From contig OZ017752.1 in NCBI GenBank assembly GCA_963969365.1, positions 186,001-250,000 of the forward strand: DNA of 64,000 nt, given 5' to 3'. Below, one piece after another: positions 1,754 through 62,572 of this stretch (the first letter of the stretch is position 1; the number at the start of each line of letters is the position of its first letter). The notes under the pieces were generated by a model. That model ran no database searches and was not told the DNA's origin. It saw nothing but the letters and a program-made list of their open reading frames with translations. The stretch is from Asterochloris sp. CNOR1. Its lineage: Eukaryota; Chlorophyta; Trebouxiophyceae; Trebouxiales; Trebouxiaceae. Both the position numbers and the translations under genes were made by a program.

Positions 1754-3825
1754 GTTGTCGATGGCAGGCCCTTTTCTGACAGGGAAGTGGAGCAGGCCCG
1801 ATTGCTTAAGCAGCTCAGGGAGACCCCAGACAACATGCTGCTTGTGCTGGGCTCTCTCAGCAGTGGCAAAACCCTGCTGCTTCGCAAGGTCCTGCTGAGC
1901 GGCAAGCTCGACACCCCGGTGTCATGGTTCAGCGGCCGTGAGCAGAAGCTGTCAGATGCCAGTGTGATGGCTGAGGCCCTTTCCCGCGAGCTTGTCGCCC
2001 AGCTCAGCGCCTTGGAAAGGTTTGGAGAGGGGCTGATGCAGACAGCCAAGACATTGGTCCAGACCAAGTTGGGCATTGACATCGAGTTGCTTGATGGCAA
2101 TGAGACCATTAAGCTGTTGCCTGCAGCTCTGGCAGCATCAACAACACCCACTTCATCTGCCATAAACATGCTGATTGGTGGCTTTGAGACTTTGCTGGAT
2201 ATAAGGGAGGCAGCCTCTGGGCCGCCGCCAGTCATCTGCATTGATGAGGTTCATGTGCTGATGGACTGGTTTGAAGGTGACAGAGCGCTGCAGACTGATC
2301 TCGATGCTCTGCTGAGGCTCTTTGTCCAGGCGGGATGATTTGCTTGCTGCATTGCTTTTGCTGTGATGTGCATATACTTGTGTGGACACCTGTGCTCTAA
2401 GCAGATCACGAAGGTGAAACAGCGGGCCCATGTCATTTTCGTCACCTCCGAGTACAGCTTTCTGACCTGGCTGCAATATAGTGAGCCTTCAAAACCTGTC
2501 CTCAACAGCCTTGTTCATGCTGCAGCTCACCCTCTCGTCTCATGCAGAGGTGAAGGTCGGCCTTATCACCACAGAGGTCATTGGGGACTTCCCTAAGCCA
2601 GAGACATGCGAGTTCTTCTAGGGTCTTCTGAGCAGCAACCGAGAAATCACTGACTCGGAGTGGACCAGCGTCTTTGGGGTGCGTCACAGGCTGCTCCCTC
2701 CTGTCATCTGGGTTGGCGCAAACATTGTTGGAGCTGGTGCCTACTGCTGCATTGCAGGTCTGTGGAGGCAACGCTGGCTTGCTGACGACCACCGCCCGGT
2801 TGATCAGAAGCAATGGCGATGTGAAAGAAGGTTGGTCACTTGTGCTGGCTGTGCCTCATGTCCAGCACTATGCTAGATATGCTGACATGATCCCCCATCT
2901 GTGTCACAGCTCTGCAGGTGGTCTGGCGCCAGCCCTGCATGGCGGGGAAGTCTGGCCTTGCGGAGAACCGTTTGTGGAGGTCAGAGCAGTATCGCACTAT
3001 GCTGCGGCTCATTTGTGAGTCTGACCATGCAGCAGTCATTGTTACAGATGCACACCGGGAACTCACACCAGACGGCGAGCAGGCTGTGCAGGCCATGGTG
3101 AAGGCCGACTTGTCGGCCAACAGGCCGGCATCAGGTAAGCAAGTTGCCACTTGATGCTGGTGCCTGCCCTGCTGCAGCACAAAGGGAAGAGCCCTCCACC
3201 AAAGTTGAGCCTTCCTTGCGCTGCAGCATGGGCAAGAGACATTCCATTGGAAGCCTTTGGCCCAGAGGTGGAGGCCGTGCTTACTGCACCCTCAGCCACA
3301 AATTTGTATTGCATGCGCCGCCTGCAGAGGCGCGGTGCCTTGAAGGTAAGCGAGTGATGATGGTGGTGTGAGTGGCAGGTGCACATGGTGGCACACAGTG
3401 CTTGTTGCCATTGACTGAGTGATGTATGGTTGTAAGAGGCCCTCAGCCTGAGGCCACAGTATGTTGTGACTGCACCCTCAGCCACAAACTTGTCCAGCAT
3501 GTTTTCGCACAAGGATTGCTCCCTTTGGGCAGGCACGAGGTGAAAGCTTGCAATGGTAGAGTGCTAAGGCTGCTGACTATTCTGAGGCTCCTCACTCATT
3601 GCAGGTGCTGCTGATGCTGTCTGCTTATTGTTTGCAGGCTGCACCCAAGTCTTGGAGGAGCAGATTGAGAATGTGGGTGGCGAGACTACTAGGGGGAAAG
3701 CAAGAATGAAGGTGCTGAGCAACACCAAGCCAGAGGGTTGGGAGGTTGAGCTTGCATACCTGCGTGAACAGGACAGGCAGCTCCGTGAGAAGGAGCTCCT
3801 GCTGCTGCGCAAGTCAGACACTTGA
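1754..3825 (+). pseudogene. P-loop ATPase, archaeal-ATPase-like, with an in-frame TAG
   Basis: Exons that read in phase: 1754-2329, 2405-2480, 2548-2678, 2758-2830, 2910-3134, 3227-3345. A last exon, 3638-3825, is Glu/Lys-rich, coiled-coil-like and ends in TGA, but its join to exon 6 is not in phase. Exon 1 has Walker A (GSLSSGKT) and Walker B (VICIDEVHVL). Later exons have a sensor-like strand (AHVIFVTSEYSFL) and a CGGNAGLL motif, the layout of STAND/archaeal-type ATPases found in families in some algal genomes. Two oddities: TAG at 2619-2621 interrupts otherwise good coding in exon 3, and exon 1 ends at a weak GC donor (CAG|GCGGGA). The start is not identified. A decayed copy of the end of exon 6 lies at about 3440-3500. 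It is probably a recent pseudogene. An effector-like (Crinkler-type) NTPase is a possible relative, which is inference only. Confidence 0.6.
3440..3500 (+). repeat. decayed copy of ATPase exon 6 end
   Basis: The stretch TGCACCCTCAGCCACAAA followed by a TTGT and a downstream GCATG occurs both in exon 6 (near 3285-3320) and here, about 180 bases downstream in the next intron. The copy has lost its reading frame. It fits the window-wide pattern of exon edges copied into the adjacent intron. Confidence 0.6.
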
Positions 3826-4117
3826 GTGCAATCAGTGTGCTGGTCCAACAATGAGTGTTTCATGCTGCCTGTCAAGTCCTGTAGCCTCACATACAGTGTG
3901 TGGCTTAGCTTGTGAGTGCCTGTTAACCCACGGCCACCTGTCTTAGCAGCCAAGACAGGCTATGGCAGATGTCAGTGTTGCTTGCAATGTATGTGCCTAC
4001 AGCTTCCATCTATAATTGCATTTCGGTTTGACTTTGACTCCTTCTCACTCTTAGGTCAGCGATCCCAGTCGGCTGCTCAAAGGCCCTCACTTAGCACGTT
4101 GCTCCATCTCCAGCAGC

Positions 4118-30100: not shown

Positions 30101-33100
30101 AAGCCAGTGACCTTGGACGGACTCAAGCAGCAGCCCACCTTGACGCGGTCGCCCACAGACAGGCGGCCTGCCGAGGGGTGCACCTCGCTCCCATCAAAGC
30201 CTGCGTTCTGCTCCTCCCCAGGCGTTCCTGCTCCTGCCCCAGCCACAGCAGCAGAGGTGGTGGGCTCGGCCGCCTCTGCAGGTTCGGGACAGGGAAGCTG
30301 TCAGCATCTCCATCTCAAAGTACAGCGCTGCCATGAGTTCAGGCTCCAACCCCTAAAACTTGGACTACATGCAGCACCAGAGCTGCCATGTCAAGAATCT
30401 CCTGCATCTGCAGCGTTGGTAAGGCACAGGCTCTTGCCAATGCACCCTCGCACCCTGAGCTTGGTGTAACGCAACCATCTAGCGACCTCTGGCTGTATAA
30501 AACCTCAAATGGGTCAAGTGGTGAGGGTCATACTGGAACCAGTGCATCACAAAGACCCAAACATCAGCAAAGTCTTTCACAGCCCGCATGCTCCTGATTC
30601 ACCTCCTGGTTCGGGGGAAGCTGCTCCGTCAGGCTGAAAGCTGACACCGTTCTGCTGACTGCTGGAGGCGCCATCCTGTGCTCCACTGGGCCTCACAAAA
30701 CTGATCTTGCCCCCATAGCCTTCCTGCAGGTAGGAGATTGTAGTTTTGACCTCTGCAGCGCGGATGGATCTTGGGCATAGTCCTGATTTCATACCTTCCT
30801 GCTGTATGTTGCACAGAAGTTGCATAGGCACCTGAGAACGATGATCCGCACCCATTTGGCTCACACAGTGACCTGTATACAAGATGACACGACTGTCCTG
30901 TGCTGCATGCCGCATACAGATCTGCCAGGCACTCCAAGTCTTGCTGGAAGCATCTCCCTGCAATTCAAATCAAACACGGCACGCTTTGCGAGCTGCCCTG
31001 TACACACTCCCTTCAAGGCTCTGCAGGCTCTGCTGCCCGTTACACAAAGCTGCACCAGAGCACACCTGAGCTGCTGCTGCTGCTGCTGCCTGCTGAGCTT
31101 GTGCGAACCAGTACACAGTAAGCACACCTCCAGCAGAACTGGGGCCAGCTTTTGTGTACACGAGCTGCCAGGAAGCAAGCAACAGATCAGCAAGGACCGC
31201 ATCCCCACCAGCTGTTGTCTGCCACAGGGTTCACAAGCAATCATCGTCTAGCAGCTGCCGCTGGTGCTCCCTCAGCCCTGCACAGCAGTGCGTCAATGCC
31301 TGTCTCAGAGCATCCCTGAGGTATTGTCCTGAACCCAGGCCCCACATGGCCGCTCCACCCCTTCCCAGACACTCCCCCTACAAAGTTGCAGAGACCAGGG
31401 GCTGACCTGCGGCCGCCGCTGCTGCCCGCTCAGCTCCCGCACGACGACGCCGCTCAGCCCATCCTGGAGGACGGCCAGGCCCCGCGACGTGCCCCGCGGC
31501 ACAGCCCTGACCCAGACCCCCACCACCTTGCGGGGGTCCTGCTGGGAGGGGCCCACCTCAAACTCCACCTCTGACCCCGTGGCCAGCAGCGTCAGCAGGG
31601 ACTCCTTGCCTGCAGGGTGGAACAGTGGTCTGTTTGAAGTCCATGATTTGCCGCTGATGTGGTGCTAAATCAGAGCCAGCAGGGGGTTCAGAGGACTGAA
31701 CTCCCACCTCTGACCCAGTGGTCAGCAGTGTCAGCAGGGACTCCCTGCCTGCATGGAGAAACAGTTGTTGATTTAGACGTTTCAGCAGGGACTCCCTGCC
31801 TGCATGGAGGAGCAGTTGTTTGCTTGGAGGTGTCAGCAGGGACTCCTTGCCTGCATGGAGGAACAGTGGTCTCTTTAGAGGTGTCAGCAGGGACTCCTTG
31901 CCTGCATTGAGGAGTAGTGGTCTGTTTGAGGGCAATGAAATTTGTGGCCGATGGGTTGCTGGAGCAGAGCCAGCAGGGGGTTCAGAGGACTGAACTGCTG
32001 TGCTTCCTGGTTGCGATGGTGCTGACGACCAACCTGTGAATCCTGAGTGACCCCAAGCATGCATGCATCGCAGCCAGACGCCAGAGTTCAAGACAGGGTG
32101 CTGGCTGCAGCGGGAGGTGGTTGGGGCTGACATGCACAAAGCAGGAGCACAGGGGATGGAAGCCTCTCCGCTGGTGGTGGGGCCACAGCACACCCCATTC
32201 AGATTAGCTGCAGAGCACTTCTGAGAGCCCCCTCTCATGCGAGTAGGAGAGTGCAGGCTGAGCAGGTCCCCAGGGTCAACCTGCCTGGCCACCTGCTGAC
32301 AGGCATCTGCAGGGGCATGGCATTCAGTGCACTACCCAGGCCTCAGCAGCGCATCTGCCGCTTGGCCTCATCCCAAGCAGGCTCTCAGTCTGGCTGCAGA
32401 GCGCTGCAACGATGGAACAGCGGCAGGCACAATGTCCCGTTCAAGGCGTGCTGATGTCATTTGATGCAGTCCGCGGCAACTCACCCCAGTCGGGCTTTCT
32501 GTCCAGCTGCAGAGCACTGCGGTGGAAGAAAATGTGCTCCTGCCTGCCGGGCGCCCTGTACACAAAGTGAGATGAACATGAGTGGGCAGACTGCTCATGA
32601 AAGGTGGCAGGCACCCTTTGCAGAGGGCCTTGGGTCAAGCTGGCTGTGCGAGAGACCGTGGGTGGGCTGATGTGATGCAGCAGCTCATGTGGCCAGCTTG
32701 TCTTGGGAGTGCACCTAGCCTTGGGACAGCGCCTGTTGCAGTTTGATGAGTGAGACAAGCAAGATCACTGCTGTCAGCAAACTGGTGAGACCACTGGTAC
32801 AAAGGAAGTGATGAACAGAAGCAGTAGGTGGCCAGTTGGGCTGTCAAGTGCCACACACCTGAGAAACGCAAATGACTCCTTGACCGCCGCTACCAGCCCA
32901 TATTGATGCCCTTCAGGAGCCTGCTGCATCTGGTGGGGCTGAGGAAACTGCTGATGTTGCTGCTGTGAAGGGTGTTGCTGCCTTGCAGGGGACTCCTGCT
33001 GAGACAGGCCTGGAGGAGCGCTCTGCTCTGTGGGGGACTTGTGCCCATGGGCAGGGGTGTAGCTCTCTGGGTGCTGCGGCTGAGTGTCAGGGGAGGCCAG

Positions 33101-33476: not shown

Positions 33477-36400
33477 ATGCTTGGCCATGCCGGGAAGGCT
33501 TTGAGGAGGCACGGGCAACACTCATGGCTTTGCTTGGCAGCAATGCACTCAGCCATGCAGGCAGCAGCTGTTAAGCCGGACCCAGAGATCAATCTGTGCC
33601 AGGCTGTGAACGATGCCTTGGCCATTGCCTTGGATAAAGATCCAAAGTGGGTCTTGCCAGGTGTTTAGCAATGCATGGGTCTAACAAAGACCAGCGCAGT
33701 CGAAGCATTGACAACTGGACAACTAGTGAGCTCTCTGAACTGCAGAGCTCTGGTCTTTGGCGAGGATGTGGCCTTTGGTGGGGTCTTCAGATGCACAGCA
33801 GGCCTGCTGACTCGGTTTGGCAAAGCTCGCGTGTTCAATACCCCGCTCTCCGAGCAGGCAAGCCCCTCTGCAGGTCCGGCATTTCTGGTGTGAAGGCTTG
33901 AACAGGTGCTGCTCTGCTCAAGCCCCCCGTCTCAGCTGACTCGAGCTAGTGTTGTGTTCTGTTGACGTCTGGCATCATCTCATCACCAGCCTCCCTGGTT
34001 GGCCTACTCCTTTCTGCACCAGGATGCTTTTGCACCATCTCCGCATGCTTACTACACCCTCTCAGCTTGCTATCAGGGCACCACCTCAATCTGTTTCATG
34101 GGAATGGAATGTGATTGTGCTCATGTGGTGCTTTTGTTGGAAGCAGCCACCTGCGCTAAGGCTGTGTGGGCCATGTTGCCATTACTGCCATGTTTGAGTA
34201 CACTGCAGAGCTCTCTGACGGCAGGCACCCATCACCATGCTGACATGTTGCGACTATGCTGCAGGGCATTGTGGGCTTTGGCATTGGGGCAGCTGCCAAT
34301 GGGTACACCCCAATTGCAGAGATCCAGTTTGCAGACTACATCCACCCCTCGTTTGACCAGTTTGTGAATGAAGCATCCAAGTACCGCTACCGCAGCGGCA
34401 ATGAGTTCGACTGCGGGGGCCTCACCGTGAGGGCGCCCTATGGTAAGCTGCAGCCCAGGCTCTGCCTCCAGGTACCATGAGCTTGCCCTGTGCAGCAGCA
34501 GTGGGTGGCCTTCGACCTTGACTCTGCCAAAAGGTACGAGGCAAGTGTCGCTGCACCCTTGTGAGCATCTCTGGCTGAGAGGCCGTCTGCTGAGTGTGAG
34601 AGCCGCCCCACTGCCCTCCTTGCATGCAGCTTTGCTCTGCCTATGCCTTCTGGCGGGCTCCGTGGGGCCCTGCTGTGCGGGTCTGTGTCTTGCGGTGAGG
34701 CACAGGGCTGCCCTGCTTCAGACCTGAGCATGTCTGCAGTGAGATCACTCTGAGGACCACCCAGTGGTCAGCTCGGGCTGCCATGCAGTGAAGCTGCAGC
34801 AAAGCTTTTGCACCTGGTGACCGCAGAGACACTGTGCCATCTCTGCAATCTGGATGTATGCGGGACACCGCTTAACATCACAAAGGAAGGCTGCATGCCA
34901 CACTTCATTGGCATAACAAGGCGCCTCTGCTGGTAGCACAGCCCCATGAGCCCCCTGCTGCAGGCGCGGTTGGCCACGGCGGCCACTACCACAGCCAGAG
35001 CCCCGAGGCCTTCTTCTGCCACGTGCCGGGGATCAAGGTGGTCATCCCCAGCCGGCCCAGGGACGCCAAGGGCCTGCTGCTGGCAGCCATTCGCGACCCT
35101 GACCCTGTCGTCTTCTTTGAGCCTAAGATGATGTGAGCACCCGCCTGGTGGGACGAGGCCTGGCTGCTACAGTGTGGGGTGTGCTGCTGCAGCACATGCC
35201 ATGTGATCATCCCCAGCAGGCCTAGAAAACCTCTGGGGCTGCTGCTTGCAGCCAGTCAGGACCCTTGGGACTATTGTCGTGATCAGGCCCCAGGCTGTTG
35301 TGAGCAACACCCTGATTGCATTTGCTGCTGCTAGCACCATATTGCTTGGAGCTGTGAATCACCACTACTACCCTTGTGGGGCATGCTGCTGCTGCTCATG
35401 CCACGAAGTGTCCCCAGCAGGCCTGGACAAACCTCTGGGGCTGCTGCCGGCAGCCAGTCAGGACCCTTCAAACTGTCTTCTGCGGGCACAATATGTTTGT
35501 GAGCATCTGCCCAATGGCACCTGCTGCTGCTAGCACCGTCCTGCTTGGAGCTTTGAGCAGTCACCACTTGCTTAGTGAGGAGCCCGTGCAAGCTGAGCAC
35601 CATGCCTGCGGCAACACGGCAGGCTAAGCACCACCCGGACCTTTTTGGTACTGCTGTGTGTCAGATGGCTTTGATAATTCCCAGGCCTCAAATTAAACCC
35701 TTGCTGGGCCACGCACCTCTGGTAACCTCAGGGCTTAACCTGAGTTTGGTGTGTGGCGACAACCACCTTGGTTCTAACCAGTATGAGCAAACAGCTGAAC
35801 TCATCTCACCTGCAAGTACCAGACAGCTGTGGGCCCTGACTCTGTACTGCCAAATACCCAGTGAGAGTACATGCAGGCCTGCACACGACAAGGTCTGGGA
35901 TGGTTGTCACCACCAATCACAGCCATTCGGCACTGACTTTCCCTGATGAGGTTTGGCCAGCCTACGGTGGAGCTTGAGTGACACAGGGGCCCTGTTTTGG
36001 GTGCCACCAGGCCTGAGCTCAAATGTGCATGCAGGTACCGCACAGCTGTGGAGGCTGTGCCAGAGGAGGACTTCACAGTGCCCATTGGAGAGGCCAGCAT
36101 TGTGCGGGAGGGCAGCGACATCACGCTGGTGGCCTGGGGTCAGCAGGTGCCAGTGCTGGAGCAGGCGGTGAGCTGGGAATGTGAAGGGCCCATGCTGTCC
36201 TGCTTCTGGCAGCAACAGCTTCAGGATGGCCCTTGGCCGGCATGTGGCAATGCTAAAGCAGGCGATGAGCTAGGGTTTCAAGCTCAGTCTTAGCTGATGC
36301 TTGCAGCTTGGTATCAAGGTGGCCTGGGAACAGCAGGTGGCAGTGCTAAAAGAGACAATGAGCTGGTACATCGGCCATATTGTGCCTGGGATGCAATTCT

Positions 36401-38162
36401 GTGAAATGGCGGCTTCTATTTGCGGGCTGGTCTGAGGTCAGCAGGCGGCAGTGCCGGAGAAGACAGCAAGCTGGGGGCCAGTGCCACTGTGACGCTGCTG
36501 TGCTCAGCAACGCAGCTCTGCTGGGCTTGGGGGCCAGATGGCAGTGCTTTTTCTCGAGCAGGCGACGAGCTGCTCCTGCCAAGATTATTGAAGGTTTGCC
36601 GCTGGCAATCAAAGTCATCATCAATGGCCTGGTGGCAGCAGATGGCGGTGCGGGAGCAGTTTGTAAGCTGGGGGATGATGCATCTGTGAATGCCGCTCTC
36701 AGCAACACTGCGGCGGTGAGTGGGGTTGCTTGCCTGCATTGTCTGTGTCACTGCTGCTGACAGCCAGATTGAGGTTTACGCCACAAAGCAGCAGGCGCCT
36801 GCGAGTCCTCTTCTTGTGCGCAAGAGATAGGGACACATTGGTCGTAGCCCAGCAGCAGCTTTGTGATGGGGTTCAGATACATGGCCCAGAGGCAGCAGGT
36901 GCAAAGACTACCTGGGACCCACTCCATCAGGCACCAGGGCTATGTCTGGCTGAAGCCTGCAACAGCCTCATCTGAGAGCCCTGTGGGCACAGATGCAGGG
37001 TGCGCCTACATTGCTGCTGTGCATGAGGCCACATGTGTCAGGCTTGCTCGGACCCAGAAGGGGGTCCATGCTTCACTCCAATCTGGCCCTGAGCGGCGCA
37101 TCTAACAACCTGACGTTATGTAGTGCCACCAACCATTGAGTCAGAGCTGCAGCTGTGCCATCGCATGGACAGCATCAGTTGTGCTGGGGCAGGTGCACCA
37201 GCTGAGCTGCTGCCAGGCCTGACCCAAGTCTGCGTCAGTGAACGCTGCTCTGCTAGTTGCCCAATGGCTCTCGAACATTTCAGGAACATTTCACAGCTCA
37301 GCATGCGTGAGGCCATGCCACCCAGCAGGCACATGCTGCCGTCTAGCATGCTCAAGGCCACCGCTCTGCCAGCACCTACAGGTCAGGACGCTGCTCTGGG
37401 CCTCTGCAGTGTCACGCGTGACCGACAGCGCTCCCTGTGCCGCAGGCCAGAACGTGTGAGGACGATCTTGGCATCTCCTGTGAGGTCATTGACCTGCGTA
37501 CCTTGGTCCCCTGGGACTTGCCAAGAGTTGGTGAGGAGCCATCCGGCATGCTGCAGGCATTTTGCTGGACCGTGCCTTAGGCAAGGCACTCTGACGGAGA
37601 CCTGCTGCATGCACACTGCTGGCCCTGCTGCTGGTGACTTGCTGAGGTGAGCTACTGTGCATCTAGCTGGCTATGTGGACAGGACTGGCCCTCAGCTGCC
37701 CTTGAATGAATTAACACTCATGCAAGGGATTGCCAGGTAGGGCCACTCAACACCCTTGCACAAACCTAGCATGAGACGCAGTGCTTGCACAATACATATC
37801 ATGTCCTGCATTCAGTCTGCTTGCAGCTGCATGTCGCTGAGCTGCTGACACCCTTGCACACCACACCAGTGGCCACATGTGTCAACAAAAGCAGCGTCAG
37901 ATAAGCGCCCAAGTGACCCCTGACTGCAGAGGCGTCGGTGAATAAGACTGGGCGCTTGCTAGTGAGCCATGAGGCGCCTGTGACTGGTGGCTTTGCAGCT
38001 GAGGTCATGACCCAAATTACCAACAGGTGCTTCTCCCGACTGGAGTCCCCTCCTGTGCGGGTATGTGGATATGACACACCGTTTCCCCTTATTTATGAGC
38101 CTGTATACCTGCCCACCGCCGCTCGCATTGTCGACGCCGTCAAGCAGTCTTGTGAATACTAA
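33477..38162 (+). CDS. BCKDHB: branched-chain 2-oxoacid dehydrogenase E1 beta subunit
   Basis: Seven exons join in phase to 359 residues: 33477-33646, 33746-33857, 34265-34442, 34964-35132, 36035-36167, 37446-37530, 37930-38162 (TAA). The protein matches mitochondrial E1 beta along its length: [37 protein letters not shown], the His-rich [51 protein letters not shown] and [14 protein letters not shown]. With E1 alpha it forms the thiamine-diphosphate enzyme that decarboxylates the oxoacids of Leu, Ile and Val in the mitochondrion. The leader [20 protein letters not shown] is basic and fits a mitochondrial presequence. The intron after 33857 has a GC donor (CAG|GCAAGC). Introns 4 and 5 carry decayed copies of exons 4 and 5. 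The spacing between exons 5 and 6 agrees residue for residue with the human protein, which supports the chain. Confidence 0.95.
35205..35490 (+). repeat. two decayed copies of BCKDHB exon 4
   Basis: Exon 4 contains GTCATCCCCAGCCGGCCCAG then GGCCTGCTGCTGGCAGCCAT. Close relatives occur at about 35208-35285 (ATCATCCCCAGCAGGCCTAG, CTGCTGCTTGCAGCCAGTCA) and 35405-35480 (GTGTCCCCAGCAGGCCTGG, CTGCTGCCGGCAGCCAGTCA). Both lie in intron 4, downstream of the source exon, about 200 bases apart, with frames lost. Confidence 0.8.
36195..36685 (+). repeat. about five decayed copies of BCKDHB exon 5 end and donor
   Basis: Exon 5 ends GCCTGGGGTCAGCAGGTGCC, AGTGCTGGAGCAGGCG and then GTGAGCTGGG. In intron 5 the same phrase recurs, decayed, near 36235-36275, 36318-36365, 36430-36475, 36530-36575 and 36625-36675, at spacing of about 95-105 bases. 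The donor position has changed to ATGAGCT, AAGCTGG, CGAGCTG or TAAGCTG in the different copies. Confidence 0.8.
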
Positions 38163-39530: not shown

Positions 39531-39769
39531 AGATGCCTTCCAGGGACAGGCTGCTCTCTGGTTTGGGGGTCCAAATGCGTGCAGGCCCGCACCTGCAGGA
39601 GGCAGCAGGGAAGGTGTGGGACGCCAGACAGCAGCCTGGATCTTGATGAGTTAGCCATGATTTGTTATCAGCTGAGTTTGGATGACTACTGCAATCAGGC
39701 TGTCAGGGCCTGCAGAGGGGCCTCCCAGCTGGCACTGCCAGCTGCTGTACATGTTTTTGCTCTGTTCAT

Positions 39770-40740: not shown

Positions 40741-40879
40741 GCTGCTACTATGCCCAGCATCGCCAGAATGCTGGGGGCTGGATGATCAGACACAATATGA
40801 GCACGCCATGCAACATTGTCGGCCAAGAAGGCAAAAGGAATGTTTTGACTCTAAGTGCCGCTGTGTTCTTCAGCAGACA

Positions 40880-42445: not shown

Positions 42446-43394
42446 GATGTCGTCGCCAAACAACAGAATAAGCTGCAACAGAGAAGAGTTGGCGATACCT
42501 TGGGTGGAGCTGACGGACACGACCTTGCAGATGGATCAGGTAGTGAGCACAGCACATGCCTGTCAGAATCAGGATGTTGCAGTCAGCTTCAGAGCAGATT
42601 ACGAGGAGAGCCAAAATGCAGCTGAAGCAGTCAGGGAGGCGCAGCTCAGCTTCTTGGCTGAGGAGCCGATGCTGCAGCTTGCTCACAGCGTCCTGAGTAT
42701 GGCACTGCAGCCAACTAGCCACAAGGAGGACCCTAGCAATGGTGACGCAAACACCTGGAGCGAGGCATTTGCCAGGAACAAGCGCTTCCAAATGGCAATG
42801 ACATCTTTCTGTAAAGGCAGCCAGTGCACTCACACTCTACACACACGAATTTGACAATTGAGGCGTGTGCCTTCTGTGCGTTGTTTGCCACTGTAGCCAC
42901 TTGATTGCTGTGCCACGAATCAGAGTTTGCTTAACCGCCATCCGTCTCTGCAGGTCAACTTCACAACGGGGAGCTCCCACTCAGATGGGAATACTTGGTA
43001 TGCAGAGCTGAAATGATGGTACGTGGAGGGGTACTGACAAAATTCCTCTGCTGGGAACACCCCATGCAGTGTTGGGTTGCAGAGCAAGCTGTAGAGATCA
43101 GGCGCTTTGGTGAGAAGTATGATAACATGTAAGTCTGTTGGATTTCCCAAATGACGCTGTGTGAGATGAGTGTCGAGCGAGGGTTGGATTGATACAGGGC
43201 ATGGCAGGTCAGTGCGCTGACAGCTTGCATCACGGAGTCGGAGCAGGTTACTTACTGCAATTTGATGTCCTGGGGATCAGATGCATGATGATGCTCAGAT
43301 GCAGCCTCTATACAAGCTGCAGACTCAGCATCTGATAACATTCACCCTCGGACAGGATGAGCCCTGCGTCCAAGCCTCAGAAGTGCCGACACTT
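42446..43394. other. spacer between the direct repeats
   Basis: A plus-strand open frame at 42441-42854 contains a Glu/Ala-rich helical-looking stretch (AEAVREAQLSFLAEEPMLQL). It has no known family, no clear start and no polished splice context, so I do not call it a gene. The rest shows nothing. Confidence 0.3.
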
Positions 43395-43835
43395 TTAAAA
43401 GCCGTCCCTGGTGGCTGCCAAAGCATCATGCGCAATTAACAGCTTGCAGCCAGCTCAGCCCTGCAGCAAGCTTTTATCTGACAGCATGATGAGCACCTCT
43501 GATGAGGGGGACTTCAAGAGTGGATGCAGCAGCGCTTGCTACATCTCTCTGCAGAGAGTTTGAGACATCTTGACATGATCACTTTGCACTGCCCTCTTTG
43601 ACAGGAACCACCCAGCCAAACTTGTCCTCTCGCTTGCCCTGCTGGATGCTTGTGAGTGCATCGTACAGCTTCATGGCAACCTCACCTACAAAGCACAAGG
43701 GGCAACAGTGAGGATCAGGACTTAGCAAACTGACAAGGGGTCAGTCAAGGGTGCAGGGCTGCGATGGGTTGATTTACATTGCTGCTTCCAAAGGAGCGCT
43801 GCCAGGCTGACAGATTGCGGTAGCAGGTCGAAAGC
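43395..43835. repeat. direct repeat, right copy: BCAT end intact, thioredoxin end decayed
   Basis: This is the partner of 42015-42445. Here the BCAT last exon (43579-43685, minus strand) is intact and in phase. The thioredoxin-derived portion (43395-43430, AAAAGCCGTCCCTGGTGGCT) has lost its stop and frame. Confidence 0.85.
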
Positions 43836-46800
43836 AGCCTCTGACTGAGTCTGCCTGCAATGCATCCTTCTTGTCTCAGCCACAGCTCAAGAGCCTTCCT
43901 CTGGCCCAGACAAGCTGCTCACCGCCTGCGCCTGGCTTCCCGAACACCTTCTTGGTGCCCTTATATGTCAGGCTGCCCACAGGGCTCAGCACGACAGCGG
44001 TGCCTGTGGTGAACACCTCGTCTGCCTGCATTGCATCCTCAATGGTGATGGGCGCTTCCTCTGCTGTGAAGCCCAGGTCCCGAGCCAGCTCTAGGACAGA
44101 CTTGCGGGTCACGCCAGGCAGAATGGTGCCCTGCAGAGACAGGGAGCAGACCGAGTCATGTAATTTGGGCGCAGATGGAAGAGACACCGGGGCTGCAGTG
44201 AAGGGCTGAGGCTGCTGGTTTGGCGCAGTACGTGCCCTGCAGGAACTTTGCCAAAGATGGCAAGAATGGTATATGCAGCAAAGTGGCTCCTGCACATGCT
44301 TGCAGGTCACATTTGGCAGCATGGTGCCCTATAGGGACCGATTGCCGAAACAGTCAAAACAGATTATGCAAGCCACCAGAGGTCTTGGCGCCAAGACTGT
44401 GAACTACAGGTTGAATATAAGCTTCAGGTCTGCCTGTCAGTCATACTGGGCAGATCGGTGCTTTGCAGGGATATGGGCAGGTCTGTCAGGCTCATGCATC
44501 ATGATGCAGAGTGCTCTAGGACCGACATACAAGCTGGTACCCTGCAGGCATCAGAGAGTGGCCACAACTGGGCAGAAGGTGCTGGAGTTCTTGCTCCTCC
44601 TGATGCAAAAGAATGTAGATGCAAGCTCTGATGTCTGCTGGCCTCGATACACCCCTATGTTCCGGCTGTCAAAAGTCCCCAAGCCCCTAAAGTTCAGCCC
44701 TGGCCTATACCCAGAGGAGGGCCCTGTGCCACTTATGCTCCACCTTGAGTGGGCCATGTCCTCCTCAGGAAACCAGGGCTGAAGCTGGTGTGGGTAGGTG
44801 ATTGCAATCACACCCAGACACATTGATGAGCAGCCATAATGTGCACACAGCAGCCACCCCTGCAACACTGCACCAGGCACTTACAACTGGCAGACAGCGC
44901 CCACTCATGCTAAGAGTGTGCAGCATAGATGCTGCAGCTGTCCTTCGTCATGGTTAGCAGTGATTCCTGTAAATGCAGAGAGGGCCAGTGTACACGCTGA
45001 ACGCCCTTCTGCACAGATTGCATGGCCCTGCCTGAGCCAAAGCCATATGAGGTCTGACTGGCTTACTAGGACGTGGGCTGCAATGGGCATGAGGGCATGC
45101 AAAGGGCCAGCCACACCTGAAGTGTGGGTGTCTTAACGGTGTTCCCCTTGACAGTAAAGATGTTGCATGACGACACCTCCTCCAGGTAGGTGTCTGACTT
45201 GGCGTCCAGGTACACCACATCTGCATAGCCCTCCTTCTTGGCTGCCAGCTGGCAGTTGAGCACCTGCATGAGGGGGCAGCAGCACACTTCAGGCAGTGGA
45301 CACAGCATCTACATGGCGCTCCTCTTTGGCTGCCAGCTGGCAGTTCAGCACCTGCACATGAAGCAGGCTGCGGATGCTGCAGGGCCGAGTCATGAAGCGA
45401 GGCACATTATGAAGCATGGAACGGGTCTGCATAGCACTGCCTCAAAGCAATCTGCTTTGCAGGCCAAGCAGGGTTGCGGCACTGCCACACCGGGGCAGCC
45501 TGTGTATAAGGGCTGACTGGACACAGCTGCCCCACTGACGTAGGCAACTGCACTGCAGCACCACATTGCAGGCCGCCCAAGCAGGGTGTTGCGGGACCAA
45601 TCCAATGGCGGTCGTGCATTGCACCGACATCAAAGGTTCTCATGCACTGCCTTGATTTCAAGGCTTGAAAATGTGAACTGACCAATGGTGCAGCTTGGCG
45701 AGGCAGCCTGCATCTGGTTCACCGCAGTCAGCCCTGCCCAAGCACTCACTGGTGAGCGGTTGCCAGCTGCCTTGGTACCGCAAGGGCCAATGTGTCAGAC
45801 CACCCAGCCCAAGCACTCACCGGCGAGTAGTTGCCAGCTGCCTTGGTGCCTCCCATCCCGCCAGGGGCCGCCCTGTGGAAGCGCTCCTCCACCACCAGGT
45901 CTATGGGGGTGAGCTGCCCTCCCTGCAGGCAGCAGGACTCTATGTGACACCAGATCTTTCACTACCAGGGCAATGGATGTGAGCTGCCCTCCCTGCAGGC
46001 AGCAATGCCCTATGTGACACCTGAGTCCTCCACCACCAGGTCTATGGGGGTGAGCTGCCCTCCCTGCAGGCAGCAAGACCCTATGTGACACCAGAGTCTT
46101 TCACTACCGGGGCAATGGATGTGAGCTGCCCTCCCTGCAGGCAGCAGGGCCCTGTGTGACACCAAAATGATCTCCTGTGCATTGTGAAGGTGAAAACACA
46201 GGAGCCTACCAGACATTAGAGAGATTCCCGCTGTGTGTGCAGGCGAGGGGCCTGGCAGTGACCAGCTGAGAGACTGCCCAGGCTTTAATGTGAGCCCCTT
46301 GCGACTCGGTCCAGTGGCATGGTCAAGCTGCCCTCCATGCCAGCAACGTGACACTGGACAAGTGCCTAGCACGCTGCAGTGCACCTCCAGCCTAGAGACG
46401 CAGCACCGATGCAGCGGCATGGTCAGCAGCAAATGAGTCCTGCAGCCCTCCTGCAGGCAGCAGGGCCCTGCATGAGAGTACAGTACGCCACAGCGGCAGC
46501 TCAAGCCTGTTGATCGATGCCGCATGCAGGAGAATTTTCCGCCGATGCTGGCGGTACCCTTTAGGAACCCTGGCACGCAGCGACAACAAGACCTTGCTTG
46601 CAATCTCTGGCCTGCCTCAACGCTTGAAATGCCTGGCACCAGCTCTGGTGGAGGAGCTCTGCCATTCTCTAACTTTCACGGGCAGCACATTGCTGGCTCC
46701 TGATTTTGTCCCAGCATGCTCCTGCCTACCTTGAAATAGGCTCCGACAGCAGCTGCGTACACGGCAAAAGTGTAGCTGGGTGCTGGGCCCAGCCCTAAGA

Positions 46801-48600
46801 TGGCGCCTGACCCCATGAGGAGGGGCCTGATGTAGAGCGACCCGCGGCCGTGGGGGGGGACATAGTCTGCGTTGGAGGCCACCAGCTCTTGCACAGCAGC
46901 CAGGAAGAGGTCCTCTGGTGGGGGCGGCATGCTGAGGCGCGCTGCCCCCGCCTGCATACGCGCGGCGTTCTGGTCTGGCCTGCAAGGCAGTAAGTGGGAG
47001 TTGGAATTGTACTAGCTGTGTGGGTAGAAGGGGAGGATGCCGAGGCACGCTGCACCCACTGCAATCTGAGCGGCTTCCTGGTCCAGTCTGCAGAAACACA
47101 ACTGAGATGGCTGCGAGAAGACGTGGGGACGCTCAGGCAGGGGATGTTGGAGAGCAGCTGAGGCAGACAGGCCAGCATCCTGGACGATGATGCTTGGGCA
47201 GTTCACAAATTTGCTGGTTCTGGCCCAGCTGCAGCGCTGCCAACTCCTTGGCTCTCAGCACTCGCCCCAAAGCTGTGACCTACCTGAAAAGCACAATCGT
47301 GCCCTGAGGGGTCCGCTGCGCCTTCATGCCCTCAAAGATGGACTGCCCATAATTGAGGACCTGCACAGTCAGTAACAGGATTGTTGAAGAGGTGCATTTC
47401 AGGTGGGGGACACGCAGCATTTAGCCAGCGCGGATGGCGTGTGGAAAAGCGGCCTGCAGGCAGCGGACTGTTAGCAAGCATCTGACCCAGCAAGCAGTTG
47501 TAGGGACAAGGCAGCCTTGGCCCACATGCAGTGCATCGACAGGCCTCCTGCTTGAGACTCTGAGACAGGCCATCTGCTCACCTGCGCGCTGGGCATCATC
47601 TGGAGGGGGCCGTAGGGTTTAATGTTACCTAGCCAGCCTGCCTGGGGTGACCACTCCGCCACATACATGTTCTGCACATGGCACAGGGAGCTCTCACGAC
47701 CAGCAGCACAAAAGTAGGCTATGTGGTGCTCAGAAGAAGAAACCCTGAATTAGTGCAGTCCCACAATTGCAGAGGGTTCTGCCTATGGGACTGGCTGCAC
47801 CAACAAGCGAATCAGTGGTGGGTTTTTGAGGAGTCAGGAGACAGCAGAGCTGTGAGCGCATTGGAGCAGCCATTGGGGGTGGGCACACAAAAGTCCAGGG
47901 ACAACAGATCAGGTCCTTTCAGATCCGCCTGGATGTGCACGGACTTTGGCCCAGTCCGCCACATGCCTTCAGGCACAGACCAACAACTTACTGGTGCAAC
48001 ATGGTCGAGCCCGAAGCCAAGTGAGTCCCAAGTGATGTTTTTCTGACGCCTGCAGGCATGTGCCAATCCTGAGCAGTGACAAGAACCCTGCTGCTAAGAT
48101 TGGTGCTGCGCATGCAGCTGCCACGCTTGCAGCAGGGGCGCTGCATGTTGCAGCTGGTGCTGCTGCAGCGCAAGACGGCAGACCATGGCCCTGCTTTGCA
48201 CTGGTCTATGAAGAGGCATGCGAGAAGTTGCTCGTTGTCATGGCCAGAGTCATGCTGCCAAGCCATCGCAAAGATGTGCCCCGCTGCAGAGGTATGCTTA
48301 GGGTCTGTGCAAGGTCTCGGACAGGACTGATGCAGCCCCATGCAACAGCACAGAGCCCAGGTGACTGGTGGTAGTCTGCTTCCTGCATTTACTGGCTGGC
48401 TAACACCGGTGGTGAAGTGCGACCAAGGTGACTCACGTGTCTGGCGTCTGCTGCTGGGCCTCTGCAATGGCAGCCTGCGCCTCAAATGCTGTGCAGTACT
48501 GGCGGTGGCGCAGGGGCCCGCAGGAGGCCGTCTGCAGCCTGTGCAACCTGCACAACCTGCAGGCATTGGCAGGTGCCTCAGAAGCTGCATGCGAGGGCAT
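43579..48600 (-). CDS. BCAT: branched-chain amino acid aminotransferase
   Basis: Nine exons join in phase to 400 residues: 48437-48600, 47992-48049, 47582-47671, 47284-47360, 46730-46979, 45821-45922, 45117-45263, 43923-44130, 43579-43685 (TGA). Class IV PLP-aminotransferase marks are LGFGLDHVAP, MYVAEWSPQAGW, VLNYGQSIFEGMKAQRTPQG, RPLLMGSGAILGLGPAPSYT, GGTKAAGNYSP (Lys240 should bind PLP), SSCNIFTVKGN, GTILPGVTRKSV and EDKFGWVVPV. It interconverts Leu, Ile and Val with their 2-oxoacids. About 60 residues precede the conserved core. They are Arg- and Cys-rich and start MPSHAASEAPANACRLCRLH, which suggests an organelle leader; plastid and mitochondrion cannot be told apart. Its oxoacid products are substrates of the enzyme containing the BCKDHB subunit encoded nearby. 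At least three of its introns hold copies of the next exon's start. Confidence 0.95.
45318..45358 (-). repeat. copy of BCAT exon 7 start and acceptor
   Basis: On the minus strand, CATGTGCAG then GTGCTGAACTGCCAGCTGGC, AGCCAAAGAGGAG repeats the start of the real exon (45263 downward: CATGCAG, GTGCTCAACTGCCAGCTGGC, AGCCAAGAAGGAG). It lies about 90 bases upstream and keeps a usable acceptor and about 12 codons before diverging. Confidence 0.85.
45935..46160 (-). repeat. tandem copies of BCAT exon 6 start and acceptor
   Basis: The exon begins after CTGCCTGCAG with GGAGGGCAGCTCACCCCCAT and AGACCTGGTGGTGGAGGA. The intron before it carries three more copies at spacing of about 70 bases (near 45995, 46067 and 46139). 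They alternate between AGACCTGGTGGTGGAGGA and TTGCCC(C/T)GGTAGTGAAAGA versions. A further remnant lies near 46445-46470. Each keeps CTGCCTGCAG as a potential acceptor. Confidence 0.85.
47010..47095 (-). repeat. decayed copy of BCAT exon 5 start and acceptor
   Basis: The real exon starts (R)PDQNAARMQAGAARLSMPPP. Upstream on the minus strand, after TTTCTGCAG, lies (R)LDQEAAQIAVGAACLGILPF in the same frame relation to the acceptor. About 70 bases match with substitutions. Confidence 0.8.
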
Positions 48601-49992: not shown

Positions 49993-50124
49993 TCAACCCT
50001 GAAGAATGCTGTGAAGGGCATCGTCCACTTGCTGATACTGAAAGGGGAACCCAGCTTCTTGCGCTCTGGTTGGTAGCACTCGCTGCCCATCCAAGACGAC
50101 AGATGCGCCCTCTCCAAGCAGCGT
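49993..50124 (-). CDS. duplicate terminal exon of the SDR39U1-like gene
   Basis: After an acceptor (CCCCCAG) the minus strand encodes 43 residues and a TGA, closely similar to the 45-residue terminal exon at 50225-50362. Both contain [16 protein letters not shown] and (Q/R)YQQVD(D/K)AL. Reading phase at the acceptor is the same (phase 0), and no frameshift or stop breaks it. It could be an alternative last exon giving a second protein C-terminus, or a young unused duplicate. Differences cluster at ordinary substitution positions (for example PTRAQEAGFPF against [11 protein letters not shown]), which argues that it was constrained for some time. Confidence 0.6.
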   Translation of the reverse strand, partial: TLLGEGASVVLDGQRVLPTRAQEAGFPFQYQQVDDALHSILQG

Positions 50125-50224
50125 CTGGGGGCAGGGAACATCATCAAATCAGCACTCTATCAATTCAACGGCTTGCGCCTATGTCTGGGCCAGGTAAGAC
50201 TCCAAGACAGAGGATCCTGCGGTT

Positions 50225-53200
50225 TCACTGTCCAGCAAAACCCAGGCTGCGCAAGGCCTTGTCCACTTGTTGGTATCTAAAGCTGAAGCCCTCTGCCTGC
50301 GCCCGGGCTGGCAGCACTCGCTGCCCGTCCAGCACGACAGACGCCCCCTCCCCAAGAATGGACTGTAGCATGCAGTGCAGGCAGGCTGTCATGTCAGAGC
50401 TGAGCAGTGCAGGCAGCAGGCTGGCGGCGCCAGGCAGTATGCTGGTGGCTTCAGGCTGGGCGCAACTGCAGGAACATTGTGCAGAGCAACGCCGCCTGGG
50501 CGTGATGCTCGGCACAGTTGAAGTTGACAAACCACCCACTGTAGCACAGTAGCGTGCTCAATCAAAGTCATGCCAGCTGCCATCAAGCCTCCCGGGTGGC
50601 AAGCAGGCAGGACGTGGCACTTGCCTTCACTGAGCAACTTCCAAGCTGCTAATCACTAAGCACCCAACGCACCCAATGCTACAGTTATGTGAGGGCCCTG
50701 CACTGGGCTGCGAGGCGCTCCTGTCATCAAGCAACCCAGGTACAAACATGGCCAGCTGACACTAGCAGCACGAACAGGCCACACCCCTCTTCAAAGGATC
50801 CAGCAAGACATGCTGCCATGCCCAGGCATGCAGTCACCTGGAGGGCAGAGTCCTGGACATCACAAGGCAGACCCACAGGCAAAGGCCACCCTTTTCACAG
50901 GATTTACAAAGACACGGGCACTCACCTGCAGGGCAAACTCCGGCACAGGCAGCCAGGAGGGGCGTCCTAGCACACTTCCCAGGGAGGAGCATAGCTCTGC
51001 CATGCGCACAGGATTTGGCGCTGTTGCGTTGTAGACACCAGAGTAGGCGCTGTTCTGCAGGGCCTCGACGTAGAAGCTGACCAAGTCGTCCCTGGCAGCA
51101 GCAGCGTTGGGCTGGGAGCTGTGCATAGGTGGCGTGGCTCATGTGTGAAGCAGGCCTGGTAATGCAGCTGCTCCCTGGCCTTTCCAGGGGCAGTGCTGCC
51201 ATGAGCAGAGATGACGTAATTCTAGCAGGGCAACAAGCATCAGCCAGTGGCCTGCTGCTCCTGTTTGCCTCAGGGCCAGATTGCGTCATGGCGGGAGTTC
51301 AAGCCTGTTACGTCGAGCAGGAAGCCCCACTGGTGGCTCAGGAGGCACCAGGGTGCCGGTAGCAGTTGATGCATGGTCACTCTGAACCCATCGGAAAGTG
51401 GCAGCTGCCTACCTGTGGATCCAGGACATCCACTGCTGCCCACTGCCCAGGGGCCCCCCAGCAAAGATCTGGAAGACAGGGGTCATCTTGGCCATAGCCC
51501 CGCCCTCCTTGGCCAGCACAATGCCTGTGCGCACCTGCATGGGCAGGACACCTCAGGCAGGCAACAGCAGATGAGGTCAGAATCTTCTCTCTTCAGAGAG
51601 TGATACGAGGCCTCCCCGCGGATCTGCATGTGGGCAGCAGCCAAGATCCTGCAGGCAGAGCAGGGTGATTGGAGTCAGCAGTACAGCAGTGGGCGGTGTC
51701 AGCTGAGTGCTTGGTGTGATACCGCTCTGTGCTTAAGAGGGTGTCGGATGGCTGGCGAGGTAGCTTGCCGATGAGGTTTAGCTAGGCAGTGATAATGTTG
51801 GGACAGCTGAACTCCCTTAGCACCCCTAGCGTCATTGTGACTGCAGCATGAGCTGATACCTGCTTACAGCTGCAGCCTGCTGTGCACAGTGGATGCCTCA
51901 AGGCCCCTGCGACTGCAGACTCACCACGACAACCCTGTCGATCTGTGCTCCCTGCGCTGCAGCTTCCCACTCCCGGCAGACCTCTGCCAGGTAGTCGTTG
52001 CCGCTGTTGCTGCCCTCGTTGAAGGTCTGGCTCAGGCTGCTGCCGTAGAAGCCCACCGCAGAAGCTGAGCACAGGACTTTGGGGCGCTCCCCCTGAGGCA
52101 GGGAGTTGATGACCTCCTGCAGCGTGACAAATTAACTCAAGACAGACTCCAGCAGACAGTACAGCCTGCGCACAGGCACTCACAAGCTCTGACTCTTGAT
52201 GCTTTGTCCAGGCAACAGGCAGAGCTGCATAGGGTGCTGCGCATTCTCTGATTGCAGCCATGCCGCAGCGTGACAGAGCGCAGTTATCATGTGTGTCAAT
52301 GCTTTGCAGGAGAGATCTTGGGTCCAATCGTGACAAAGCTGTCAAGCTGTGCTCTTGACTCACCACTAGCTGCTGGGTGAGGCCCACGCGGGAGCGCTTG
52401 ATCTCACGCTTCAGCCCCTCCGACCAGCGCGTCGAGATGGGCTCACCTGCAGGCACCAGCAGGCCAAAGGAATGTTCCACACTTGCACGGGACACCTCAT
52501 TGCTGCGAGGCACATGCCTGCTGTGACACCAGCTGTTGCCCCAAAAGAGATGGACACTGCACAAAGCTGCATATGCAGGCCAACCTGCATGCTGCGATAA
52601 TTTGGCTTAGCCTGCTACAGCAGGCGCATCAGCTTACAAAGCTGCAATGCAAACAGCTGAGCATGGCCAGGCACAGCCTCAGCGTCACAGCTCTGGGTGC
52701 GCTGCTGTCAAGCAAGGTTGACAGCCCAGGGACCACAGCACTAGATTGTTTGCATTGCATATGCAGCTAAGCCTCATTGACCAGGCACAATCCCAGCGAC
52801 TCACAGCACCAGGTGAGATGCTCACCAGCCAGGTTGATGACCCCATCGGAGCCCTTCAGGGCATCTGCCATCCGTGAGAAGGGGTAGAACTCAACCCGAG
52901 GGTACTGCAGCTTGTTGCGGGCCTTGTCGGGGTTGCGGCTTAGCACGCGCACGGCGTTGCCCTGGGAAGCCAGCTTTGCCACCAGGCGGCTGCCTACAAG
53001 ACCTGTGGCCCCTGCAGTGGCATGAGGTACGGTGGTCACAAGGTCAGGGCAGAGAGTGGCATGGAGCCTGGTACTAATGAGGGGAGGGCAGAGGACACCA
53101 TGTTTCAAGTCAGCAGCCCTGTTTGGCAGTGACATCAGATAGTGCAGAGTACTAGTTTCTGCAGCACTGCCACGGCAGGGGCCGCCCTACAGGGATTCTA

Positions 53201-53953
53201 AGGGCTGCTGTCGGCACCAGCCTGGGACGAAGGCTGCAGAGTCAAACGGTAAGGCAGTAAACAGCCAAGCAGCTGCCCGCCAGGCCAGATGCACCTGCAA
53301 CGCCCAGCATAGACTGCTTTGTGTAAAAGCCAATGCTGGGAGTGCTGTTGTAAACAATGCTCACTGAACGACCACCAGGGGGCTGCACCTGCACTGACAT
53401 TACACTGCAGTCAGGGCTGCTCCAGCCGCCAGCAACTGGACACTGCATTCTAAAGGTTCAGGCAGATGTGTACATTGCCCAGACACCTACAGAGGCAGGC
53501 CCACAGGCACCTCAGCACTGCTGCTAGCAGCAGAAGAGGACACAGCCATGGGCCAGTGGTCCCTCAGCGGAGGCTGGGACATGTGTTTTCCAGCCCAATG
53601 CAGTGGCATCTGGAAATGCTGAGCTGCACACGTTCTCAGTCAGGCCATGCCTGCACTAACTAAGGCATGGATAGCCTCTGGCAGCATGACCTCACCTCTG
53701 CGCAGCTACCTGAACTGCTGGCATCAGATGCGCAGACAACTGCTGATGCACAGCACATCATGCCAGCCCTCCCACCTGTCACTGTGATTGTCTGCTTCTC
53801 GCCATTGGCCTGTGCTCTGCATGGTGCTATACAGCTTTGCCGGCGCCTGCCTCCCTTTGTGCCAATCTGCCTGCCTATCAGCGTGCTCCTGGTGCTTCTG
53901 AGGTTGCTGGAGCCTAGTCTAGATGAAGAAGGGGACCTTGTGCGACGCGACAT
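50225..53953 (-). CDS. SDR39U1 / GIANT CHLOROPLAST 1-like epimerase
   Basis: Seven exons join in phase to 354 residues: 53776-53953, 52826-53011, 52364-52446, 51925-52116, 51413-51534, 50926-51091, 50225-50362 (TGA). The Rossmann motif [11 protein letters not shown] begins at residue 60. Then come [89 protein letters not shown] and a DUF1731-type C-terminus ([16 protein letters not shown]). The leader [20 protein letters not shown], followed by more Arg/Thr-rich sequence, is a typical plastid transit peptide. The plant relative GC1 (AtSulA) sits at the chloroplast envelope and affects plastid division; transferring that role here is inference. A second terminal exon lies downstream at 49993-50124. 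It is head to head with the Fic gene. Confidence 0.9.
53242..53300 (-). repeat. decayed copy of SDR39U1-like exon 2 start and acceptor
   Basis: In intron 1 the minus strand reads GTTGCAG, then codons for [11 protein letters not shown]. The real exon 2 reads CACTGCAG, then [14 protein letters not shown]. The copy keeps the acceptor and the frame for about 11 codons before a stop. Confidence 0.75.
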
Positions 53954-62570: not shown

Positions 62571-62572
62571 TC

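What the first reader, a model, noticed from the sequence alone, without database searches (positions are those of the whole stretch)
3440..53300. Exon edges with their splice sites are repeatedly copied into adjoining introns across many genes
In the ATPase, RPS26, UNR-like, BCKDHB, BCAT and SDR39U1-like genes, segments made of an exon end, its splice site and some intron are tandemly copied one to five times into the flanking intron, usually at 50-165 base spacing. Acceptor-side copies lie upstream and donor-side copies downstream of the source exon. They show all stages of decay. This suggests introns here grow by recurrent tandem duplication across exon-intron junctions, leaving arrays of decoy splice sites. 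I know of single-exon duplications and introner elements, but not of a genome where this is so pervasive.
Basis: partly seen in the sequence, partly recalled or inferred. Interest (0 to 1): 0.88.

Follow-up and report, generated by a model that had tools for sequence, protein, structure and literature searches.

The report
Intron copies of neighbouring exon ends
In this lichen alga, many introns contain worn, same-direction copies of the end of the neighbouring exon with its splice signal, most simply left by local DNA duplication, so genes carry extra near-normal splice sites whose use can be tested directly.

Summary
The genome is Asterochloris: the spliced BCKDHB protein matches a JGI Astpho2 protein at 100%. 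In five genes modelled by protein homology, 20 of 92 exon edges (19 of 46 introns) have a copy at p<1e-3 in their own intron, against 0 of 92 inverted and 3 of 623 swapped controls. In 324 kb from four contigs, gene-finder models give 92 of 994 edges against 4 of 3976 swaps. One array has five copies.

The copies decay like non-coding DNA; their splice dinucleotides are neither detectably purged nor preserved (36 of 51 kept, background 64%).

One correction: random intron-body segments are duplicated about as often (26 of 346), so exon edges are not singled out. The simplest account is local direct, often tandem, duplication blind to gene structure, with coding constraint keeping the exon-proximal site in use. 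RPS26 (0 of 10 edges) and the ATPase copy do not support the junction claim.

No comparison genome or RNA data could be reached, so how unusual this is, and whether decoys are ever used, stay open.

The parts
33561..38159 (+). BCKDHB gene, 7 exons (33561-33646, 33746-33857, 34265-34442, 34964-35132, 36035-36167, 37446-37530, 37930-38159); the start 33561 is from the gene finder, the protein match begins at 33585
   Evidence: spliced alignment to human 1dtw; the spliced query is 100% identical over its whole length to JGI Astpho2 protein 9081
35207..35306 (+). copy 1 of the 3' part of BCKDHB exon 4 with its donor
   Evidence: p=2.5e-8, 70% identity, GTGAGCA intact
35411..35510 (+). copy 2 of the 3' part of BCKDHB exon 4 with its donor
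   Evidence: p=5.6e-7, 69% identity; the region is also a TRF array of period 202, found at one place in the genome
36208..36672 (+). array of five decayed copies of the BCKDHB exon 5 donor edge (36208-36274, 36318-36366, 36428-36475, 36524-36572, 36625-36672)
   Evidence: four copies read GCA and one GCG (both Ala) where the exon reads CCA (Pro); Trebouxia, Coccomyxa and Symbiochloris proteins have Ala there
43609..47357 (-). BCAT gene, conserved part (exons 47284-47357, 46730-46979, 45821-45922, 45117-45241, 43923-44130, 43609-43685; a 22-nt exon at 45491-45512 is doubtful)
   Evidence: spliced alignment to bacterial 4dqn; best database hits 76% (unnamed source) and 75% (Trebouxia) identical, no Astpho2 protein among the 120 of 157 listed
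45955..46146 (-). three copies of the acceptor edge of BCAT exon 45821-45922 (45955-46004, 46026-46075, 46097-46146), each with intact TGCAG
   Evidence: TRF 71-bp x 4 array at 45885-46164, found at one place in the genome
45738..45779 (-). copy of the donor edge of BCAT exon 45821-45922, GTGAGT intact
   Evidence: p=3.5e-10, spacing 71
47030..47092 (-). copy of the acceptor edge of BCAT exon 46730-46979
   Evidence: p=3e-7, spacing 108
45300..45341 (-). copy of the acceptor edge of BCAT exon 45117-45241
   Evidence: p=2.1e-8, spacing 88; place
44286..44338 (-). copy of the acceptor edge of BCAT exon 43923-44130
   Evidence: p=8.5e-6, spacing 198; place
31699..31913 (-). four copies of the acceptor edge of UNR-like exon 31407-31609 (31699-31756, 31782-31811, 31832-31862, 31883-31913)
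   Evidence: p 8e-7 to 6e-15; gene-finder exon; the predicted protein has a CSD domain
50830..50859 (-). weak copy of the donor edge of SDR39U1 exon 50926-51091
   Evidence: p=5.8e-4
50008..50118 (-). copy of the last mapped SDR39U1 exon (50243-50362), downstream of it
   Evidence: 76% identity over 111 bp
3469..3501 (+). copy of an inner part of the predicted ATPase exon 3227-3345 in the next intron; does not include the predicted junction
   Evidence: p=2.4e-7; gene-finder exon

Best explanation
Introns of this alga gain DNA by short (median spacing 142 bp) same-direction local duplications that take no notice of gene structure. When a duplicated segment runs from an exon into its intron, the extra copy lands inside the intron with part of the exon and its splice site. 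A duplication across a donor leaves the copy downstream, and one across an acceptor leaves it upstream. Only alleles in which the exon-proximal site is still spliced keep the protein intact, so those survive, and the copy becomes a decoy that drifts like other intron DNA. Because the exon is held by selection, exon-edge copies may stay recognisable longer than duplications wholly within introns, and so serve as fossils of intron growth. SHOWN: the copies, their direction, locality, statistical excess and non-coding decay. INFERRED: the molecular step (break repair with fill-in, or slippage), non-use of the decoys, and net intron growth.
For: Own-intron copies at 20/92 edges against 0/92 inverted and 3/623 swapped; 92/994 against 4/3976. 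Wrong-side hits are rare (13/868). Intron bodies are duplicated at a similar rate (26/346; windows). Two units searched in the whole genome were found at one place each (that search can miss common words). Mismatch by codon position is 18.6, 18.1 and 24.4%, and 61 of 67 gaps are not multiples of 3, as expected of a non-coding copy beside a constrained exon. Splice dinucleotides are kept at about the background rate (36/51 against 64%, p=0.38). Introns of 400-1000 bp carry copies more often than those under 250 bp (odds ratio 5.6). Five copies keep an Ala codon that three of eight relatives share and the exon has lost.
Against: 15 of 29 repeat loci are not adjacent but have a spacer over 30 bp, two of them at gene scale (1277 and 1388 bp), so later deletion or non-tandem local copying is needed. 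Density varies (C7 66 events in 242 introns, C2 3 in 48) without explanation. Introns over 1000 bp carry few copies (2 of 26), against a simple growth trend. In many old copies the match stops soon after the splice site, which fits faster decay of the intron part but could also mean that little intron was copied. The longer visibility of exon-edge copies is argued, not modelled.
Confidence: 0.82

Rival explanations
1. A process that copies exon ends specifically, for instance at nicks or RNA-DNA hybrids formed at splice sites during transcription, or through an RNA intermediate.
For: The core match crosses the junction in 59 of 92, and many old copies show exon plus splice site but little intron.
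Against: Intron-body segments are duplicated at a similar rate; junction and intron windows hit equally (9.0% and 8.5%). A tandem copy of exon sequence inside an intron must cross the junction anyway. 4 of 29 repeat loci lie in predicted intergenic DNA.
Confidence: 0.08
2. The decoys are functional: kept by selection as alternative or regulatory splice sites.
For: Intact decoys score close to real sites (donor median 4.6 against 6.7 for their own true sites; acceptor 5.6 against 7.2; other intronic GT -1.7 and AG -1.6). Slight excess of spacings divisible by 3 (38/92, p=0.067; 19/41 intact, p=0.057).
Against: Dinucleotides are kept no better than neighbouring pairs (p=0.38). Use would bring an in-frame stop in 28 of 41, and only 5 of 41 would be in frame without a stop. 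Mismatch and gap patterns are non-coding. The score comparison is conditioned on an intact GT or AG.
Confidence: 0.06
3. Introner-like or other mobile elements put similar sequence into many introns.
For: Repeated segments in many introns.
Against: Copies match their own neighbouring exon while swapped introns give background. Two units were found at one place each in the genome. Unit lengths vary (51, 71, 202 bp).
Confidence: 0.01
4. Chance, low complexity, gene-finder error or assembly artefact.
For: Repetitive composition; home-made gene finder; at least one predicted exon edge is itself a decoy.
Against: Shuffled, swapped, inverted and far-region controls; the rate is higher, not lower, in homology-based genes; copies diverged by up to about 30%, which assembly errors do not make.
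Confidence: 0.02

Closest known systems
[quoted passage not shown] review PMC3443670, passages seen; potato RdRp case PMC4974935, passages seen)
   Same: Tandem duplication inside genes creates extra splice sites; in the potato case an intron-exon stretch was duplicated, and a further 83-bp duplication lies within an intron.
   Different: There the duplication makes a new, used intron. Here existing introns hold the copies and the extra sites are not needed for the protein; the test for whole-intron duplicates gave a small, contaminated excess.
Small tandem duplications from break repair (CST/Pol alpha-primase, PMC8355091, passages seen; rice 'patch-mediated' duplications, Vaughn and Bennetzen 2014, paper not held, content recalled)
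   Same: Direct, local, short, tandem; [quoted passage not shown] Partially tandem ones in rice are recalled, not read.
   Different: Described as mutation events; not described, in the passages seen, as arrays of junction copies across a genome's introns. Spacing here is mostly over 100 bp.
Tandem exon duplication, as in mutually exclusive exons (PMC6071210, search listing only)
   Same: Exon sequence repeated next to its source with splice sites.
   Different: Here mostly one edge is copied, and the copy is non-coding and decayed; wrong-side hits are 13 of 868.
Introners (PMC9860276, search listing only)
   Same: Repeated sequence tied to introns.
   Different: Local, matched to their own exon, not shared between genes at more than background.
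Novel intron positions by sliding or duplication in Drosophila (PMC2891723, passages seen)
   Same: Duplicated junction motifs near introns.
   Different: Few cases (5 of 31 put down to duplication), not supported by remaining sequence similarity according to the authors.

Membership tests
Local direct (tandem) duplication | copies in the same orientation as the source | tested here: met
   direct 92/994 against inverted 2/994; intron windows 8.5% against 0.3%
Local direct (tandem) duplication | copy adjacent to its source | tested here: inconclusive
   13 of 29 adjacent within 5 bp, 1 at 6-30 bp, 15 beyond 30 bp
Local direct (tandem) duplication | copies local, not dispersed | tested here: met
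   two units searched in the whole genome, one place each; swapped introns at background
Break-repair tandem duplication (CST/Pol alpha fill-in, patch-mediated) | breakpoint signature (little or no microhomology) in recent events | tested here: inconclusive
   seven repeats printed and looked at by eye only; breakpoints not scored
[quoted passage not shown]
   scores >=22 in 6 of 497 introns against 4 of 1985 controls, >=28 in 3 against 0; at least one of the top cases is a gene-finder error; not a general feature of these introns
Introner elements | similar sequence in introns of many genes | tested here: not met
   swapped-intron controls at background; two units at one place each
Tandem (mutually exclusive) exons | copy keeps coding capacity | tested here: not met
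   mismatch nearly as high at codon positions 1 and 2 as at 3; 61 of 67 gaps not multiples of 3

The most novel reading that the evidence does not exclude
Introns of Asterochloris are largely built from repeated local copies of their own gene, with exon edges as the fossil record, and the spliceosome picks the exon-proximal site among near-equal decoys that lie on the intron side. Pairing of the nearest sites across the intron would favour the decoys, so splice sites would be chosen from the exon side in a unicellular alga with introns of about 300 bp (predicted median 303), where intron definition has been inferred for the green algae Volvox and Chlamydomonas (PMC4378016, passages seen).
Probability: 0.3. 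Interest if true: 0.82.

Novelty: new variant of a known kind. Interest (0 to 1): 0.64.

Why it matters
It offers an internal record of how introns lengthen: old local duplications fade, but those that caught an exon edge can still be recognised because the exon is conserved. It also supplies a natural experiment on splicing. In the 324-kb sample 41 decoys with intact GT or AG, 8 of them scoring as high as or higher than their own true site, sit 29-376 bp from the predicted site in use, and decoy dinucleotides as a group show no sign of selection. RNA data would say at once whether site choice is made from the exon side, how noisy it is, and whether noise limits intron growth. [quoted passage not shown]

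Tried and rejected
Unsupervised codon models drifted to non-coding composition and were dropped. Retraining the gene finder lowered recovery of curated exons from 16 to 13 of 18, so the first iteration was used; its splice-site matrices come from the same four genes, so that recovery is not independent. A first banded alignment was too permissive and its 'adjacent 28 of 29' is discarded (redone). The search for exon-born introns gave a small excess containing at least one false exon. Control genomes: viral contigs gave nothing; genome contigs gave 80 kept loci of 114, all with bacterial titles, not used. A 3-base bias of spacings is only suggestive. Regional density does not follow GC (rho 0.06, p=0.76) or mean intron length (rho 0.25, p=0.16) over 32 bins. 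Ten paper searches, of which I saw titles and abstract starts, showed no paper on arrays of exon-edge copies in introns; the library holds open-licence papers only.
Full report
WHERE THIS IS. The window is C7:186001-250000 of a 56.4-Mb, 21-contig genome. A BCKDHB protein spliced from the window is 100% identical over its whole length to JGI protein Astpho2/9081, and IleRS on the same contig aligns at 99.7% to Astpho2/9063. That makes it Asterochloris, the lichen alga of PMC6652019 (passages read: 56 Mb, about 9 introns per gene).

GENE MODELS. Four genes of the finding were mapped by spliced alignment to solved proteins: BCKDHB (1dtw), BCAT (4dqn), SDR39U1 (4b4o) and eS26 (7qix). IleRS, 25 exons, was mapped to the JGI protein. 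BCKDHB and IleRS agree with JGI models; the other three rest on distant proteins, and a 22-nt BCAT exon is doubtful. For scale I wrote a gene finder; the model kept recovers 16 of 18 internal exons of the four curated genes exactly and adds 5 within their spans, but its splice matrices were made from those genes. It gives 58 genes and 562 exons in 324 kb from C1, C2, C4 and C7, hence 504 introns, of which the 497 of at least 60 bp were tested. These are predictions and some exons are wrong.

THE OBSERVATION. Each exon edge (up to 70 bp of exon and 12 bp of intron) was aligned to its own intron. In a first test with 150 shuffles per intron, 9 of 44 edges reached p<0.01 and all nine matches crossed the junction. 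With p-values fitted on swapped introns, 20 of 92 edges in five genes pass 1e-3, in 19 of 46 introns; inverted edges 0 of 92, swapped introns 3 of 623. By gene: BCKDHB 2/12, BCAT 5/12, SDR39U1 1/10, RPS26 0/10, IleRS 12/48; one BCKDHB acceptor that passed does not pass here. In the larger set donors hit 45/497 and acceptors 47/497; inverted 1/497 and 1/497; swapped 4/3976; the wrong side of the exon 6/434 and 7/434. These lie in 81 introns and 27 of 57 genes with introns. Counting further copies at p<5e-3, the 92 edges have one copy in 59 cases, two in 25, three in 7 and four in 1. At a looser threshold BCKDHB exon 5 has five.

NOT ONLY EXON EDGES. Random 82-mers inside introns match elsewhere in the same intron at 26/346, not different from edges at 92/994 (p=0.38). 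In a scan of 12,760 windows of 60 bp against 600 bp on each side, direct repeats above the 0.1% null level are found in 8.5% of intron, 9.0% of junction, 4.8% of coding, 4.1% of predicted intergenic and 0.75% of mixed windows; inverted ones in 0.3, 0.09, 0.05, 0.17 and 0%. So duplication is general. An exon-edge copy drifts against a conserved master, while in an intron pair both sides drift. The edge copies should therefore be visible for longer; this is an argument, not a fitted model.

FOSSILS. In the BCKDHB exon 5 array four copies read GCA and one GCG (both Ala) at a codon where the exon reads CCA (Pro). Of nine proteins compared, only the Asterochloris one has Pro; Trebouxia, Coccomyxa and Symbiochloris have Ala, three have Leu and two Gly. 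The simplest reading is that the copies keep the older state; since they may descend from one another, this is one event, not five.

DECAY. In the 92 larger-set alignments, mismatches are 18.6, 18.1 and 24.4% at codon positions 1-3, and 61 of 67 gaps are not multiples of three: copies behave as non-coding beside a constrained exon. Where the splice dinucleotide lies at least 4 aligned bases from an alignment end, it is kept in 36 of 51, against 1390 of 2169 (64%) neighbouring pairs (p=0.38). Decoys are neither purged nor preserved at a level this sample could detect. Intact decoys score nearly like real sites (donor 4.6, n=20, against 6.7 for their own true sites; acceptor 5.6, n=21, against 7.2; other intronic GT -1.7, AG -1.6), and 8 of 41 equal or exceed their own true site. 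Using them would bring an in-frame stop in 28 of 41, and only 5 of 41 would be in frame without a stop.

MECHANISM. Direct orientation, locality (two units found at one place each; that search can miss common words) and variable unit length (51, 71, 202 bp) point to local duplication. A stricter scan for segments of local high identity at 12-1500 bp gave 60 segments at 29 loci: 13 touching a junction, 12 in introns, 4 intergenic. At 20,000-21,488 bp the control had such segments at 0 shifts in C1 and 5 in C7 (C2 and C4 not used as control). Of the 29 loci, 13 are adjacent within 5 bp, 1 at 6-30 bp and 15 have a longer spacer, two of these at gene scale. So either many tandem copies were later trimmed or some arose non-tandem. 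Break repair with fill-in gives short tandem duplications in mammalian cells (PMC8355091, passages); partially tandem duplications are recalled from rice (paper not held). Slippage is not excluded. Coding constraint explains the geometry: after a duplication across a donor only use of the first donor keeps the protein, and across an acceptor only the last.

INTRON GROWTH. Copies occur in 14 of 193 introns under 250 bp, 12 of 105 of 250-400, 53 of 173 of 400-1000 (p=6e-9 against the shortest class), but in only 2 of 26 over 1000 bp. Length enters the p-value, so this is not a search-space effect, but very long predicted introns may be mis-modelled. Density differs by region: C7 66 events in 242 introns, C1 15 in 154, C4 8 in 53, C2 3 in 48. 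In 60-bp windows it is 10.0, 4.6, 6.9 and 3.2%. All four segments exceed the null, though one 10-kb bin of C1 has none; the cause is unknown and the window lies in the densest segment.

SPLICING. Decoys lie on the intron side. If splice sites are paired across introns, as PMC4378016 infers for Volvox and Chlamydomonas from intron length (passages), nearer pairs should often win and decoys should be selected against. They appear not to be. That hints at choice from the exon side, or at other cues that mark true sites. No RNA data were reachable, so this stays a hypothesis. A slight excess of spacings divisible by three (38/92, p=0.067; 19/41 intact, p=0.057) would fit rare use of decoys, but is not significant.

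NOVELTY. Tandem duplication as a source of introns is established (PMC3443670, PMC4974935, PMC2891723; passages). I saw no report of exon-edge decoy arrays across a genome's introns in the listings of ten searches of open-licence papers. The Asterochloris paper has no occurrence of 'tandem' in its main text, and the Trebouxia A48 paper has 'intron' only in a reference title and no 'tandem'. Without a second genome I cannot say whether Asterochloris is special or the first place where this was looked for.

Noticed in passing
42015-42437 and 43394-43830: The region holding the last mapped BCAT exon is duplicated about 1.38 kb downstream of itself in the same direction, 78% identical; one of the two may be a pseudo-exon.
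   Followed up: partly
60571-62574: Tandem pair of BTB/POZ-like gene pieces on the minus strand, 85% identical over 412 bp, spacing 1277 bp; the one copy scanned (60880-61251) scored below Pfam's cut-off.
   Followed up: no
62570-63820: Long ORF with a reverse transcriptase domain (RVT_1), likely a retrotransposon at the window edge.
   Followed up: no
33857-33858: BCKDHB intron 2 has a GC-AG donor (GAGCAG|gcaagc), supported by the protein match.
   Followed up: partly
14888-15172: Class 3 lipase exon on the minus strand.
   Followed up: no
7079-7693: Direct repeats at spacings of 155, 312 and 464 bp over the 3' end of RPS26 and beyond; the coding end of RPS26 was not settled.
   Followed up: no
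L001-L026 and window: Local duplication density varies from 0 to 25% of 60-bp windows between 10-kb bins with no link to GC.
   Followed up: partly
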